This document shows, piece by piece, positions 8,589-47,325 of a stretch of 64,000 nucleotides of DNA. The DNA is from Planococcus lenghuensis (lineage in GTDB: Bacteria > Bacillota > Bacilli > Bacillales_A > Planococcaceae): assembly GCF_001999905.1 (NCBI RefSeq), contig NZ_CP019640.1, positions 1,344,001 to 1,408,000 of the forward strand, in the 5' to 3' direction. A model generated the notes under the pieces. The model had not been told where the DNA came from. It ran no database searches and saw nothing but the letters and a program-made list of their open reading frames with translations. A program made the position numbers and the translations under genes. The first letter of the stretch is position 1, and each line of letters begins with the position of its first letter.

Positions 8589-9362
8589 ATGGAAGCGATT
8601 ACATGGAAAAACGAGGATGGCGTAGCGATTGCTGCAATTAACCGTCCTCCGGCGAACGCTTTATCGCGTTCACTGATTCTGGAAGTTAATGAATTGCTTG
8701 ATGCTGTGGAAAACGATGCGGAAGTCCGCGTAGTCGTGCTGCATGGGGAAGGCCGGTTTTTCTCAGCCGGTGCAGACATCAAGGAATTCACCTCTGTCAC
8801 ATCGGGGGAAGAGTTTTCGAAACTGTCAGCAAGCGGCCAGCAAGTATTTGAACGGGTGGAGACTTTCTCAAAACCGGTGATTGCCGCCATCCATGGTGCT
8901 GCCCTTGGCGGCGGGCTGGAACTGGCGATGAGCTGCCACATGCGGTTCGTAACAGAAACCGCTAAGCTCGGACTGCCGGAACTGCAGCTTGGCCTCATTC
9001 CGGGCTTTGCCGGCACGCAGCGGCTGCCGCGCTATGTCGGCATGGCGAAAGCAGCAGAAATGCTGCTGACGAGTGATCCCATCAGCGGTGAGGAAGCGGT
9101 CCGGCTTGGACTTGCCAACCGCGCCTATGCGGAAGAGGCGTTATTGCCTGAAACACTGAAACTCGCAAAGAAGATTGCGAAAAAAAGTCCGGTTTCCGTC
9201 AGTGCCGCACTCCGGATGCTGCAATTCACAAAAGATGCGCAGTATCACGCGGGGGTGGATGCCGAAGCGGAAGCGTTCGGCACTGTTTTCGTATCGGAAG
9301 ACGCGAAAGAAGGCATCCAGGCTTTCCTTGAAAAGCGGGAAGCAAGTTTTAAAGGGAAATAA
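8589..9362 (+). CDS. fadB: Enoyl-CoA hydratase
   Basis: 257 residues; the ATG at 8589 is preferred to the TTG directly before it, behind AAAGGAGACG. Crotonase motifs are present: the oxyanion-hole segments SAGADIKEF (about 58) and [12 protein letters not shown] (about 103), and [11 protein letters not shown] with the catalytic glutamate region (about 128-140). It hydrates trans-2-enoyl-CoA in beta-oxidation. It lies 16 bases after fadR and 20 before etfB, in one operon feeding electrons to ETF. Confidence 0.93.
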
Positions 9363-17484: not shown

Positions 17485-19680
17485 GCGAGAAGATCCCCAC
17501 CTCCGGGAGCGACAAGGGCAAAGCCCAGCGAACAGGTGGGGGATGAATCGCTTTTTTGATGTTTGTAAGAACATTCAGCTACTTACCACTTCCTGCTGGC
17601 AACCGGGACGTTCGCTTGCTAAACTGGAACAAACGTTCTTACTTTGACAGGAGGGAATCGGGATGAAGAAGTGCCTGTTCAGTAACCGGATGGCAAAAAA
17701 TCGGCTGCCGGCTGAAACGGTCGGCCAGCTGACGCAGCTGCTCTGTGACTTCAACCGCCTGCAGTGCACCGCTTATCAGTCGCAAATCCGTGATCTGCGT
17801 CTGCAGGCTAACGGAGTTTCCGTTACATACACCGATTCCCTCCATATCCGGATGAAAAAGCAGTTCGGCCTGAACGATTACTATACGAACAGCGCCATCC
17901 AGAATGCGAAGGCCTTGATCTCCAGTCAGAACGAGCTGAAAAACCTGTACCGGGACCAGGCCCGCGAAAAGATCCGGAAACTCAGAAAAAAACTGAAACA
18001 AGTGCGGACGAAACGCACCCAAACGCAAACGATCAAGGATAGCCTGAGAGCGGGGAACCTGAAATTTCCGAAACAAAGCCACTGGCAACGAGAGACGGCG
18101 CACGTATCATCCGCAAGCACCGTGGGAAGGTGAAGACCGGCTCGTACAGCCAGCTTTTCTTCAACGCCTATGATTTCGAAATCCGGCACATCAATGGTCT
18201 GCTGAAGCGCTTGAAACAGCAGGCGGGCGCGCTGCAGTTCCGCCTCCGCCGGCTTGAAGAACAGCTGGCAGCACGGGAAGCGACCATTCCAAGTGCTGTC
18301 TTCGGCGGCAAAAAGCGCTTTCAATCCCGCCGCCACTGTGAGACGGCCAAACAGAAAAAACGGTGGAAAGAAGACTTCAGTTCCGCCCGAAACAAACGGA
18401 TGCGGATTTCCGGGCGGAAAGATGCCAAGCACGGTAACTTCGTTTTTCTGTACAATGAACAGTCCCACACCCTGTATTTGACACTTCCGAACCGGAAGGT
18501 GGTTGCATTCGCCGATGTCCGCTTTCCGTACGGACAGGCGCTACTGGATGAGACCATTCAGGCGCAGCGCACCTGTCCGAATAAAAAAGTGAACGGCAAG
18601 GCCATCGCCTGGGAACTGGAAGACCATGGCGGCTATTATGTGATCAAAGCCATCATTGAGATTGAGCCGAATCCGCACACAAACTATAGCCGCACGACGG
18701 GCGTCATCGGCATCGACTGCAACGTGGACTGCTTCTCTTGGTGTGACGTGTCGGCGGATGGCAATTACCTCGCAAGCGGCCACATCCGTTTTCCGATTGC
18801 CGGGAAGCGGAGCGGCCAGGTGACAAAAGCAATTGAAGCGGCGGCGATCAACGTCGTCCGCTTGGCGAAAGACGCAAACAAACCGATTGCCCTGGAAAAA
18901 CTCGATACCACGCTCAGCCGGACCGGCGACCGCTACGGCAACAAAAAAGCCAACCGCATGAAAAGCCTGTTCGCCTCAAGAAAAATGGCGGCCAGCGTGA
19001 AAGCGCGAGCGGACAAGGAAGGGGTGGCCGTGTTCGACGTCCATCCCACCTACACCTCCGTCAGCGGCAAGTTCAAGCACATGCGCCGGCTCGGCATCAG
19101 CGTCCATGAAAGCGCCGGCCTCACCATCGGCCGGCGGGCGCTCGGGTACAACGAACGGGTTCCGCGCTTCCTGCACACCTTTGTCGCCGACCGTAAGAAA
19201 ACGAACCACCACTGGGCGCAGTGGCACGACCTGAACAAAAAAATCGACCTGTTGCCGGAGAAGATCCGCCACTTGTACAACATGCACCAGCCACTGAATG
19301 GCTTGTCCCTGGACCACTTGTTGGAAATGGAACAATTGAAAATCAGAAGACTGATATAAACCAACGGAAGAACCGGAACCCCCTGAAGGGACGCCGGCCA
19401 CAAGAACAGATGACCGGTCTCCGCAGGCCGAAATTCCGGTTCTTCCCCACTGAAGCGCATCACCCGCTGTCGTGCAGCTGGTTGTTCGCGGAAACAGCCG
19501 GTTTGGCTGCGGAAGTGAACGGCCACGACGGCTTCCCGGAAGCCCGATCACGCGCAGCTGGCGATAGTGCGACCACGCCCGTTGGACGGCAGGTGGGTTC
19601 CGGAGCCGCGCGCTATAGGGCTTGCGTGTTTTGGAATCCCCCACCTCAAAAGGCGGATGCCTTTAGGTGGGGGTAGTTCA
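17485..19680 (+). mobile_element. IS200/IS605-type element without tnpA (tnpB only)
   Basis: The left end carries a large imperfect palindrome (ATCCCCACCT at 17494-17503 with AGGTGGGGGAT at 17535-17545). The right end carries the matching hairpin CCCCCACCT (19638-19646) with AGGTGGGGG (19665-19673), followed by TAGTTCA. These subterminal hairpins, rather than terminal inverted repeats, are characteristic of the IS605 superfamily. The element holds only a tnpB-like gene and a long 3' non-coding tail, so it would need TnpA in trans to move. Exact ends are estimated to a few bases. Confidence 0.8.
17663..19359 (+). pseudogene. tnpB: TnpB-family RNA-guided nuclease, frameshifted
   Basis: The ATG at 17663 behind ACAGGAGGGAATCGG opens a 136-residue stretch ending near KDSLRAGNLKFPK. 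The reading then has to shift by one base around 18070-18085 to continue as LATRDGARIIRKHRGK, and from there is open to 19359; rejoined length is about 565 residues. RuvC motifs I (GVIGIDCNVD) and II (PIALEKLDTT) are present. The usual C-terminal CxxC zinc ribbon is missing. In its place is VHPTYTSVSGKFKHMRRLG with GISVHESAGLTIGRRALG, as I recall from a zinc-less group of OrfB proteins, and the third RuvC acidic residue is not obvious. No in-phase slippery heptamer is seen, so it is called a pseudogene; a sequencing error remains possible. Confidence 0.75.
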
Positions 19681-21734: not shown

Positions 21735-22484
21735 ATGGCAAGACATGATGGAAGAGAAGCGACTGAATTACGGAATATACAGATTGAAAAGGATTATTTG
21801 ATTCATCCGGAAGGCTCGGTGCTTATTACGGTGGGGCAGACGAAAGTGATCTGCACGGCGACGATAGAAGCAAAAGTGCCGCATTTTTTGCGCGGACAGG
21901 GCAAAGGCTGGGTGACAGCTGAGTACTCGATGCTGCCACGAGCGACAAATCAGCGAACGCAGCGTGAAGCTTCCCGCGGTAAAATCGGCGGACGCACAAT
22001 GGAAATTCAGCGCCTGATCGGCCGGGCGTTGCGTGCCGTCATCGACCTAGAAAAACTCGGTGAACGGACTATTTGGGTGGATTGTGATGTCATTCAGGCA
22101 GACGGCGGAACCCGGACCGCTTCGATTACCGGTGCATTCGTTGCGTTGTCTCTCGCGTGCGCAAAACTGGATCTGCCGGTATTTCCAGTGACGGATTATT
22201 TGGCAGCAACGAGCGTCGGTGTATTGGAAGAAGCTGGTGCGGTGTTGGATCTGGACTACAGTGAAGATTCCAAAGCGGAAGTCGACATGAACCTTGTCAT
22301 GACCGGGGCAGGCCAATTCGTTGAAATCCAAGGGACCGGCGAAGAAGCGACATTTTCCCGTGCGCAGCTGAACGAATTGCTGGACCTCGGTGAAGCGGGC
22401 ATCCAGCGACTGGTTGCCGTGCAGAAAGAAGTGCTCGGTGACATCAGCAGCCGAATCGGAGAAAAGGCGGGAACTATCCAATGA
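21735..22484 (+). CDS. rph: Ribonuclease PH
   Basis: 249 residues from the ATG at 21735 behind ATGGAGGAGGATTTAC; an upstream in-frame ATG at 21684 has no such site. RNase PH landmarks include [16 protein letters not shown] (about 60) and [20 protein letters not shown] (about 114-133). It trims tRNA 3' ends by phosphorolysis. Its ATGA overlap with rdgB indicates coupling. gerM, found upstream of rph in B. subtilis, is missing. Confidence 0.96.
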
Positions 22485-23077
22485 AACAAATCATTATCGC
22501 AACGAATAATAAAGGGAAAGCAAAGGATTTTGAAGCGCTCCTCAATCCATTGGGTTATGAAGTGCTGACTTTGCAGGATATTGAAGAAGAGATCGATGTG
22601 GAAGAGACCGGTACGACATTCGAGGAGAACGCTATCCTGAAAGCGGAAGAAACAGCGAAAATCCTGAATAAACCGGTGATTTCCGATGACAGCGGACTTG
22701 AGATCGATGCGCTGAACGGGGAACCGGGCATCTACTCGGCCCGTTATGCAGGCGGCGAGAAAAGTGATAGCGCCAATATCGATAAAGTGCTGTCAAAGCT
22801 TGAAGGCGTACCGGAAGAACAGCGTACGGCCCGCTTCCGCTGTGTGCTGGCAATTGCAGCACCGGGTGAGCAGACAGAGACATTCTCGGGTTCTTGCGAG
22901 GGACGGATTCTAAACGGACGCCGGGGAGAACATGGTTTTGGGTATGATCCGATCTTTTACGTGCCGGAACTTGATAAGGCCATGGCGGAACTCGCGCCGG
23001 AGCAGAAAGCGAAGATCTCTCATCGCGGAAACGCCCTGCGTGAGCTGAAGGCAGCAATGCCATCGTGGCTGAGCTAA
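22481..23077 (+). CDS. rdgB: XTP/dITP diphosphatase
   Basis: 198 residues from the ATG at 22481, overlapping the rph stop. Family motifs are the N-terminal [36 protein letters not shown] (about 67-86) and [13 protein letters not shown] (about 148). It hydrolyses non-canonical purine triphosphates. The usual downstream neighbour ysnB is not present; a tRNA and the variable region follow. Confidence 0.95.
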
Positions 23078-23107: not shown

Positions 23108-23136
23108 TTGACTTTTGTGTCCGGAGTTTCTATAAT
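23108..23136 (+). promoter_or_regulatory. tRNA-Arg promoter
   Basis: TTGACT (23108-23113), exact 17-base spacer and TATAAT (23131-23136), 32 bases before the tRNA 5' end. Confidence 0.8.
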
Positions 23137-23167: not shown

Positions 23168-23536
23168 GTCCCAGTAGCTCAGCTGGATAGAGCAACGGCC
23201 TTCAAGAATAGGAGCCTCCGTAGGGAAACGAGAACCTGCAGAGTGCACGGCACTATATCGGTGAAACCTTAACAGATCATGCTGATGGCAATACCGAGGA
23301 AACTTACGATCTCATACGTATGAGATTCAGGTGTTTTAAAGGCTCAAGTTCACTTGAGGGTAGAAACGCTAAAACATAATCAGGCGACTGATTATCGTGA
23401 GGTTCCGTAGAGACTACACGTGCCGCACCTGAAATGGTGAAGATATAGTCCAGACTTGCAAACAACACCTGTTGGTGGCGAAAGCCATAGCGGTAAGCTA
23501 AGCCGTCGGTCGGGAGTTCGAATCTCTCCTGGGATG
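23168..23536 (+). tRNA. tRNA-Arg(UCU) interrupted by a group I intron
   Basis: 5' exon 23168-23202: acceptor GTCCCAG, D-arm GCTC..GAGC, anticodon stem ACGGC and loop start CTT. 3' exon 23498-23536: CTAA, stem GCCGT, variable CGGTC, T-arm GGGAG-TTCGAAT-CTCTC, acceptor CTGGGAT and discriminator G. Joined, the anticodon loop is CTTCTAA, giving anticodon UCU (Arg, AGA/AGG codons). CCA is not encoded. All stems pair (one G-U at position 1-72). The 295-base insert sits between anticodon bases 34 and 35. The exons resemble the Bacillus tRNA-Arg(UCU). Confidence 0.92.
23203..23497 (+). ncRNA. Group I self-splicing intron, ORF-less (295 nt)
   Basis: P1 pairs exon CUU plus intron C1 with GGAG at 23211-23214, leaving the canonical U-G pair at the 5' splice site (U23202 with G23212). 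The last intron base is G (23497). P3 is CGGCAC (23248-23253) with GTGCCG (23420-23425). P7 is GACTA (23412-23416) with TAGTC (23446-23450). P8 is CACC/GGTG (23426-23429, 23436-23439). AGATATAGTCC at 23441-23451 is the classic 3' core signature. Peripheral hairpins include ATAATCAG-GCGA-CTGATTAT with a GNRA loop. No homing endonuclease is encoded. Confidence 0.9.
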
Positions 23537-23580
23537 TTAGAAGACATATTGAGCTGTTTTCATCAGTTCATACACAAAAA

Positions 23581-23626
23581 AGAGCCTTAAAACGTTTGCG
23601 TTACGACGTTTCAAGGTTCTTTTTCT
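23581..23626 (+). terminator. Rho-independent terminator after tRNA-Arg
   Basis: AGAGCCTTAAAACGT and ACGTTTCAAGGTTCT arms with TTTTTCTTT tail. Confidence 0.82.
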
Positions 23627-23741
23627 TTATTCCTGTTTTTATGGTGCGGGAGATTAACTATATTGTAACCTTTTGATAAAAATAAAGGGTTTCCTTCTCT
23701 TTTATAGAAGTAATCGGAGTAGAAGGGGAGTGAGGATAACG

Positions 23742-47074: not shown

Positions 47075-47325
47075 AGTGACATGCAGTGATGAGGAAAGTA
47101 CGATGTGCGGCCGTTTCAGAGAGAATGCGGAAAGGTGAGACGCGTTCACGGGCAAAACCATCGGAAAGTCCCCTCGGAGCAGTTTCCGTGAACTCTTCAG
47201 TAGCGGAAACCGGACCTGAAATCCGTTATCGAATGAAGTGCCAGGCGCGCTTTTTCTCCGTGCCTGCGAATAAAGGTGGTACCGCGAAAGCTCCTTCGTC
47301 CTTTAAGACGAAGGGGCTTTTTGTG
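47075..47325 (+). promoter_or_regulatory. T-box riboswitch upstream of valS
   Basis: The conserved T-box sequence AAAGGTGGTACCGCG lies at 47272-47286, followed by the terminator hairpin GCTCCTTCGTC/GACGAAGGGGC with TTTTTG (47289-47325). Upstream, GATGAGGAAAGTACGA (47085-47100) is the Stem I AG-bulge region. Uncharged tRNA binding would favour the antiterminator and valS expression; tRNA-Val is inferred from the gene. I could not place the specifier codon with certainty. Confidence 0.92.

What the first reader, a model, noticed from the sequence alone, without database searches (positions are those of the whole stretch)
23168..23536. Group I intron splitting the anticodon of tRNA-Arg(UCU)
A 295-nt ORF-less group I intron sits between anticodon bases 34 and 35. 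P1 with U-G wobble, P3, P7, P8, the 3' core signature and the terminal omega-G can all be drawn, and the joined exons form a complete tRNA. Known bacterial tRNA group I introns that I recall are in tRNA-Leu(UAA), tRNA-Ile(CAU), tRNA-fMet and tRNA-Arg(CCU); a Bacillales tRNA-Arg(UCU) host is one I do not remember. If this is the only UCU gene, splicing would be essential for decoding AGA codons.
Basis: partly seen in the sequence, partly recalled or inferred. Interest (0 to 1): 0.85.

Follow-up and report, generated by a model that had tools for sequence, protein, structure and literature searches.

The report
Self-splicing intron splits tRNA-Arg(UCU) anticodon
The only gene found in this bacterium for the transfer RNA that reads AGA codons is cut inside its anticodon by a self-splicing RNA, apparently the worn-down relic of a mobile intron whose relatives, some still carrying their DNA-cutting enzyme, sit at the same spot in distant bacteria and in phages.

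Summary
Confirmed. A 295-nt group I intron (23203-23497) lies between U34 and C35 of a complete tRNA-Arg(UCU) gene (23168-23536). Strong covariation in 49 relatives supports the fold; Rfam's Intron_gpI matches, but below its gathering score. No other UCU gene was found in this genome, and 22 of the 23 intron-bearing genomes of the host family (261 searched) show no intact UCU tRNA, so splicing should be needed to read AGA. It is not a singleton. A scan of 84,980 species genomes gave 72 matches; 69 could be read through both exons, and all 69 are tRNA-Arg(UCU) split at U34|C35 (49 Bacillota, 15 Bacteroidota, five metagenome genomes of other phyla). Sixteen of the 69 carry an intact frame for a homing endonuclease (PDDEXK_5 in all six tested). 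The window's intron keeps an in-frame, internally deleted remnant of that gene (23324-23410), so it looks like a former homing intron that is now fixed and depends on splicing. Viral copies exist, one about 80% identical to host introns, which makes phages likely carriers. I found no report of this host gene in the open-access papers searched. It is a new, widespread subfamily of a known kind. Splicing, homing and phage transfer are inferred, not shown.

The parts
22481..23077 (+). Upstream neighbour (RdgB/Ham1-type ORF, name recalled): marks the native locus
   Evidence: tblastn finds it in the fetched flank of 23 of 26 intron loci and 9 of 11 intronless loci
23108..23136 (+). Promoter-like site TTGACT-17-TATAAT
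   Evidence: 11 of 12 consensus matches; but 1 site found against 1.1 expected in shuffles, so not significant by number alone
23168..23202 (+). 5' exon of tRNA-Arg(UCU), ending at U34
   Evidence: ARAGORN with introns
23203..23497 (+). Group I intron, 295 nt; 23497 is omega-G
   Evidence: unconstrained fold z = -4.44
23209..23214 (+). Internal guide UAGGAG: GAG pairs C32-U33-U34 (P1, U.G at the splice site), UAG pairs C35-U36-A37 (P10)
   Evidence: P1 pairs invariant in 49 of 49; P10 98.6% of cells
23248..23253 (+). P3 5' strand; 3' strand 23420-23425
   Evidence: 6 pairs, 3 with changes on both sides, 100% paired
23324..23410 (+). In-frame relic of the homing endonuclease gene (28 codons and stop); stop codon lies in the ribozyme core
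   Evidence: Read back from the stop: DSGVLKAQVHLRVETLKHNQATDYREVP, beside full-length frames ...GDLGVLKAQVDL... and ...LRVETPKNNQ...DYREVP. The 26-residue peptide itself gives no Pfam match
23412..23416 (+). P7 5' strand (GACUA); 3' strand 23446-23450 (UAGUC)
   Evidence: Invariant in 49 of 49, so supported by conservation, not covariation
23426..23439 (+). P8 hairpin
   Evidence: 100% paired, 1 of 4 pairs with a change on both sides
23498..23536 (+). 3' exon of tRNA-Arg(UCU), from C35; no CCA encoded
23578..23628 (+). Terminator-like hairpin with T run

Best explanation
[quoted passage not shown] The precursor folds so that the guide UAGGAG holds the anticodon loop C32-A37, guanosine attacks after U34, the freed U34 attacks after omega-G, and the joined exons form the tRNA that reads AGA. 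The intron descends from a homing intron: full-length relatives carry a PDDEXK_5 endonuclease that most likely cuts intronless tRNA-Arg(UCU) genes so that the intron is copied in, at times between distant hosts, with phages as likely carriers. In this lineage the endonuclease gene was deleted internally; its two ends stayed because their codons also form a helix of the folded intron. The intron now persists because only exact removal would be harmless and failed splicing would cost an essential tRNA. Supported here by comparison: position, fold, absence of another copy, distribution, decay series, end-codon helix. Inferred: splicing activity, endonuclease target, homing, phage transfer.
For: Fold and splice sites. 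Sole gene: one BLAST match, no UCU among 50 typed tRNAs, no intact arm at up to 1 mismatch. Host family: 23 of 261 genomes have the intron core, 236 of 261 an intact arm; both in 2, of which G237's hit lies in an MFS transporter gene and is no tRNA and G279's is a real tRNA. Native locus invaded. Family: 69 of 69 readable named loci are U34|C35 of tRNA-Arg(UCU). Endonuclease: 18 of 69 introns are 600 nt or longer, 16 with an intact frame; six proteins tested, all PDDEXK_5, E 2.7e-28 to 1.6e-36; one compared with solved structures, 2OST at E 0.0078. Decay series. End-codon helix in full-length genes: 109 of 112 pairs, 97.8 in shuffles, 0 of 5000 as high. Several entries into the host family: one clade rejected, AU p = 0.018. 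Viral copy: L190, about 80% identical to host introns, inside their clade with SH-aLRT 99, on a contig with terminase and PhoH-like genes.
Against: No RNA or enzyme data. The Rfam score is below the curated cut-off. P6 and P7 do not vary, so covariation does not test them. The extraction of the 69 introns looked for CTT and [CT]TAA exons, so their uniformity is partly built in; ARAGORN on its own of 72 Arg(UCU), 21 otherwise (I read these as shifted splice points) and 3 none. The search for intact copies used one exact pattern and could miss variant arms; 4 of 261 genomes show neither pattern. The best decayed relic tested matches PDDEXK_5 only at E 0.0075, below its cut-off. The tree rests on short, partly long-branched sequences. 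Exiguobacterium introns as one clade are not rejected (p = 0.51), so vertical descent is also real.
Confidence: 0.88

Rival explanations
1. A true group I intron, but splicing in the cell needs a protein helper, or is slow and regulated, so that it meters the supply of tRNA-Arg(UCU).
For: A review passage states that protein co-factors are presumed for splicing in vivo (PMC7717549, passages). P1 is only 3 pairs.
Against: The complete core and strong covariation fit an active ribozyme; a tRNA-Arg(CCU) intron self-splices in vitro (PMC7717549). Nothing here points to regulation.
Confidence: 0.25
2. The direction is the reverse: compact introns came first, and the endonuclease gene was inserted into the P6 hairpin later, its ends growing into intron sequence.
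For: The end codons form intron helices; the shared columns are the same in short and long introns.
Against: Short introns in several lineages hold in-frame protein-like ends, for example L262, L268, L294, L261 and the window; GDLGVLK lies at the start of the PDDEXK_5 profile, so these codons are protein sequence. The tree needs at least 8 changes between full and short, without giving their direction.
Confidence: 0.12
3. The gene is a silent remnant and the cell reads AGA by other means.
For: No expression evidence; AGA and AGG are rare, 9 of 2009 codons in six window genes.
Against: Compensatory change in the anticodon stem across the intron, near-exclusion with intact copies, intact exons and signals.
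Confidence: 0.02

Closest known systems
[quoted passage not shown]
   Same: Group I intron in the anticodon loop after U34 (position recalled; viral Leu(UAA) introns here have the same CUU|A site); the guide pairs C32-U33-U34 (recalled)
   Different: Other tRNA; cyanobacterial sequences were not compared here; the Leu intron is thought old and vertically inherited (recalled), this one is patchy
Synechocystis tRNA-fMet group I intron with I-Ssp6803I
   Same: tRNA anticodon-region intron with a PD-(D/E)XK endonuclease of 150 residues in a 655-nt intron (PMC1995217, passages); weak sequence match to 2OST, which I recall as I-Ssp6803I
   Different: Other tRNA and phylum; here most introns have lost the enzyme
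Alphaproteobacterial tRNA-Arg(CCU) intron (Agrobacterium; Bartonella BbgpI)
   Same: tRNA-Arg host; [quoted passage not shown]
   Different: Anticodon CCU, other insertion position (recalled), other phylum; an endonuclease is not mentioned in the passages seen
Azoarcus tRNA-Ile(CAU) intron
   Same: Small tRNA group I ribozyme; similar P7/P8 strands (recalled, not tested)
   Different: Other tRNA and position (recalled)

Membership tests
Group I intron | Conserved core P3-P4-P6-P7-P8 | tested here: met
   Rfam match below gathering score; P3, P4, P8 covary or pair fully, P6 and P7 invariant
Group I intron | P1 with U.G at the 5' splice site and omega-G at the 3' end | tested here: met
   U.G in 49 of 49; last base G in 69 of 69
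Group I intron | Guanosine-started two-step splicing | not testable with these tools
   Needs RNA work
Bacterial tRNA anticodon-loop intron | Lies in the anticodon loop; joined exons form a tRNA | tested here: met
Subgroup IC3 | Subgroup-specific structure and descent | not tested
   Resemblance is recalled; no IC3 reference was fetched
Homing endonuclease, PD-(D/E)XK (PDDEXK_5), full-length relatives | Profile match | tested here: met
   6 of 6 tested, above curated cut-off; 16 of 69 introns have an intact frame
Homing endonuclease, PD-(D/E)XK (PDDEXK_5), in the window | Intact gene | tested here: not met
   Only a 28-codon relic; no Pfam match for the peptide
Homing intron | Enzyme cuts the intronless allele and the intron is copied in | not testable with these tools
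   Inferred from patchy spread at one site

The most novel reading that the evidence does not exclude
A homing-intron lineage specialised on the anticodon loop of U34 tRNAs shuttles between phages and bacteria of several phyla, and between tRNAs (Arg-UCU, Leu-UAA, Lys-UUU, Thr-UGU), with an endonuclease gene written into the ribozyme itself: its first and last codons form a helix beside the catalytic core. Hosts may keep the split essential tRNA because it blocks reinvasion by the endonuclease, or because it hides the anticodon from anticodon-cutting nucleases until splicing.
Probability: 0.2. Interest if true: 0.8.

Novelty: new member of a known kind. Interest (0 to 1): 0.58.

Why it matters
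It adds tRNA-Arg(UCU), and Bacillota, Bacteroidota and probably further phyla, to the homes of bacterial tRNA group I introns; a 2014 survey lists cyanobacteria, alpha- and betaproteobacteria (PMC4033280, passages). The viral matches bear on a 2014 review's statement that all phage introns then observed lay in protein-coding genes (PMC3984707, passages). One site on an essential gene shows every stage from endonuclease-bearing intron through relic to bare ribozyme, so the invasion-decay-fixation model can be tested in culturable hosts such as Exiguobacterium or Neobacillus. In practice, tRNA finders that do not allow such introns will report these genomes as lacking a UCU tRNA, as ARAGORN's default did here.

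Tried and rejected
Rejected: chance or artefact; a second intact gene in this genome; acquisition of the whole tRNA gene instead of invasion of the resident one (3 of 26 intron loci and 2 of 11 intronless loci showed no RdgB hit in the fetched flank); a lone oddity. Led nowhere or went against me: plasmid collection, no match; an even sample of the phylum had the core in only 2 of 398 genomes, one being the window's own; the first register for the end-codon helix was off by one and gave no signal (52 of 112, shuffles 53.2), corrected, where a second helix was weaker (79 of 96, 4 of 5000 shuffles as high; other register 67 of 96, 109 of 5000). One-clade test for Exiguobacterium not rejected. 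Ten paper searches of an open-access library gave no report of a bacterial tRNA-Arg(UCU) group I intron; most subscription papers are not in it. Eight papers were opened for passages only.

Rows dropped before counts: 3 of 72 named loci (L231, L232, L249) are cut at the locus edge. G036 was left out of alignment A1 (15 of 16) for its length. A2 used 49 introns: the window, L032 and 47 of the 49 short introns (L220 and L221 left out as near or exact duplicates). L211, a duplicate of L243, was dropped from the trees and the helix test. L270 and L272 were dropped from the helix test for lack of the motif. Of the 120 viral loci 29 went into the tree, picked by me, with two introns of LR756508. Of 16 intact endonuclease frames 6 were run against Pfam.

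Full report
WHAT IS THERE. The window holds a tRNA-Arg gene at 23168-23536, interrupted by 295 nt (23203-23497). ARAGORN without introns finds nothing; with introns it places the interruption exactly between U34 and C35, and the joined exons form a 74-nt tRNA-Arg(UCU). A TTGACT-17-TATAAT site lies upstream; such sites are expected about once by chance in the stretch scanned. A stable hairpin with a T run lies downstream (z = -4.12), so the gene looks like its own transcription unit. Rfam's Intron_gpI model covers 23193-23467 with E = 6.8e-4, but at 23.5 bits, under the curated 50, so a default scan misses it.

STRUCTURE. BLAST over 151 genomes gave 16 genomes with a full or near-full intron match, the window's included (aligned). 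Forty-nine introns scored against a structure that I named have 97.4% of cells paired (87.5% in shuffles, 31-42% when slid), 46 pairs with changes on both sides and a covariation score of 0.289 against 0.112. P2, P3, the P9-type hairpins and the P6 extensions covary; P6 and P7 are invariant and so rest on conservation. The guide UAGGAG pairs with the anticodon loop: GAG with C32-U33-U34 (P1, U.G at the splice site) and UAG with C35-U36-A37 (P10). The anticodon stem, split by the intron, has one pair that is G-C in 33 and C-G in 16, which is selection on the joined tRNA. The unconstrained fold of the window intron has z = -4.44.

IS IT THE ONLY UCU GENE? Fifty other tRNA genes were located and typed: arginine ACG and CCG, no UCU. 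That list may be capped at 50. Two further searches agree: one BLAST match in this genome, and no intact arm at up to one mismatch (six matches, none an intact UCU arm). In the host family 23 of 261 genomes have the intron core and 236 of 261 an intact UCU arm, both by exact pattern. Two genomes have both: G237's match lies in an MFS transporter gene, where ARAGORN sees no tRNA, G279's is a real tRNA-Arg(UCU). So 22 of 23 intron-bearing genomes show no intact copy. Four genomes show neither pattern. AGA and AGG are 9 of 2009 codons in six window genes: rare but used.

HOW WIDE. Sixty-nine could be read through both exons; all 69 have CUU before and CUAA after the intron, which ends in G, in a paired anticodon stem. 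My extraction looked for such exons, so some of this uniformity is built in; ARAGORN on its own of 72 tRNA-Arg(UCU), 21 something else, which I read as shifted splice points, and 3 nothing, these being cut at the locus edge. By phylum the 69 are 49 Bacillota, 15 Bacteroidota, 2 Rhodothermota, 2 Chloroflexota and 1 Mycoplasmatota; the last five are metagenome bins by their titles, so misbinning is possible. In an even sample of the phylum only 2 of 398 genomes matched, the window's own among them: wide but sparse.

ENDONUCLEASE AND DECAY. Of the 69 named introns 18 are 600 nt or longer, 12 are 330-599 and 39 shorter. Sixteen of the 18 have a frame of about 138 residues that ends at a stop codon inside the ribozyme core; L270 and L272 have broken frames. 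Six of the proteins were tested and all six are PDDEXK_5, E 2.7e-28 to 1.6e-36; one was compared with solved structures and weakly hits 2OST, E 0.0078. Shorter introns keep in-frame remnants with the middle missing, for example L262, L268, L294, L261 and the window: DSGVLKAQVHLRVETLKHNQATDYREVP and stop. The L262 relic matches PDDEXK_5 only at E 0.0075, and the window peptide not at all, so the kinship of the relics rests on alignment with the full frames. In 16 full-length introns the codons of the two gene ends pair with each other: 109 of 112 pairs, 97.8 in shuffles, 0 of 5000 as high. The gene ends are thus also intron structure, which explains why deletions spare them.

SPREAD. The tRNA sits beside the same neighbour gene with and without the intron (23 of 26 and 9 of 11 loci), so the intron entered a resident gene. 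Introns of the host family as one clade are rejected (23 rows against 58, AU p = 0.018), those of Exiguobacterium are not (p = 0.51). Viral L190, with terminase and PhoH-like genes, carries an Arg(UCU) intron about 80% identical to host introns and falls in their clade (SH-aLRT 99). Viral L118, an Arg(UCU) intron, groups with a viral Leu intron (99), which suggests a move between tRNAs. A 484-kb uncultured phage record has introns after U34 in both tRNA-Lys(UUU) and tRNA-Arg(UCU). Four viral Arg(UCU) introns of about 600 nt hold another frame; the one tested is HNH. Long branches make the deep part of the tree unreliable.

PRIOR KNOWLEDGE (passages read, not whole papers). Group I introns in four different tRNA genes in bacteria, and I-Ssp6803I as the first PD-(D/E)XK homing enzyme (PMC1995217, 2007); tRNA group I introns listed for cyanobacteria, alpha- and betaproteobacteria (PMC4033280); phage introns then seen only in protein genes (PMC3984707); tRNAscan-SE not designed for such introns (PMC8450103); self-splicing of a tRNA-Arg(CCU) intron (PMC7717549). 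Ten searches of this library showed no account of a bacterial tRNA-Arg(UCU) group I intron.

VERDICT. This is a genuine new member of a known kind, in a host gene that recurs across distant bacteria, and by its relic a decayed homing element. Splicing, cutting and transfer remain to be shown at the bench.

Noticed in passing
IMG/VR loci L084-L203: Viral contigs often split tRNAs with group I introns: 50 of 99 called as Leu(UAA), others as Arg(UCU), Lys(UUU), Thr(UGU) and CAU tRNAs; some carry HNH-type ORFs. Many other isotype calls are probably shifted splice points.
   Followed up: partly
L083:1367-1635 and 1766-2017 (LR756508.1, 484-kb uncultured phage): Two neighbouring intron-split tRNAs, Lys(UUU) with 193 nt and Arg(UCU) with 175 nt, both after U34.
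   Followed up: partly
L072:12365-12428, L075:1214-1275, L074 about 9203-9319, L076 about 1253-1283: Copies of the tRNA-Arg 3' end lie 5-26 kb downstream of the gene, as after integration of mobile elements; in three of four they include the intron's 3' end, even beside an intronless tRNA (G103). The G124 and G103 copies share the same upstream sequence.
   Followed up: partly
Bacillus phages 268TH007 and 268TH002: Both hold 37 bases identical to the tRNA-Arg 3' end, as a phage attachment site would.
   Followed up: no
genus g5 genomes: Most hold two, one even three, intact tRNA-Arg(UCU) arms, often 0.2-20 kb apart and at times in opposite orientation.
   Followed up: no
G000 tRNA set: Leu(UAA), Leu(UAG) and Arg(CCU) tRNAs are not among the 50 typed genes; the list may be capped, or further genes may be split.
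   Followed up: no
window 18130-19359 +: 409-residue ORF that looks transposase-like (TnpB-type) by eye; no Pfam match at E 0.01.
   Followed up: partly
window 47077-47306 +: T-box leader, 122.6 bits.
   Followed up: no
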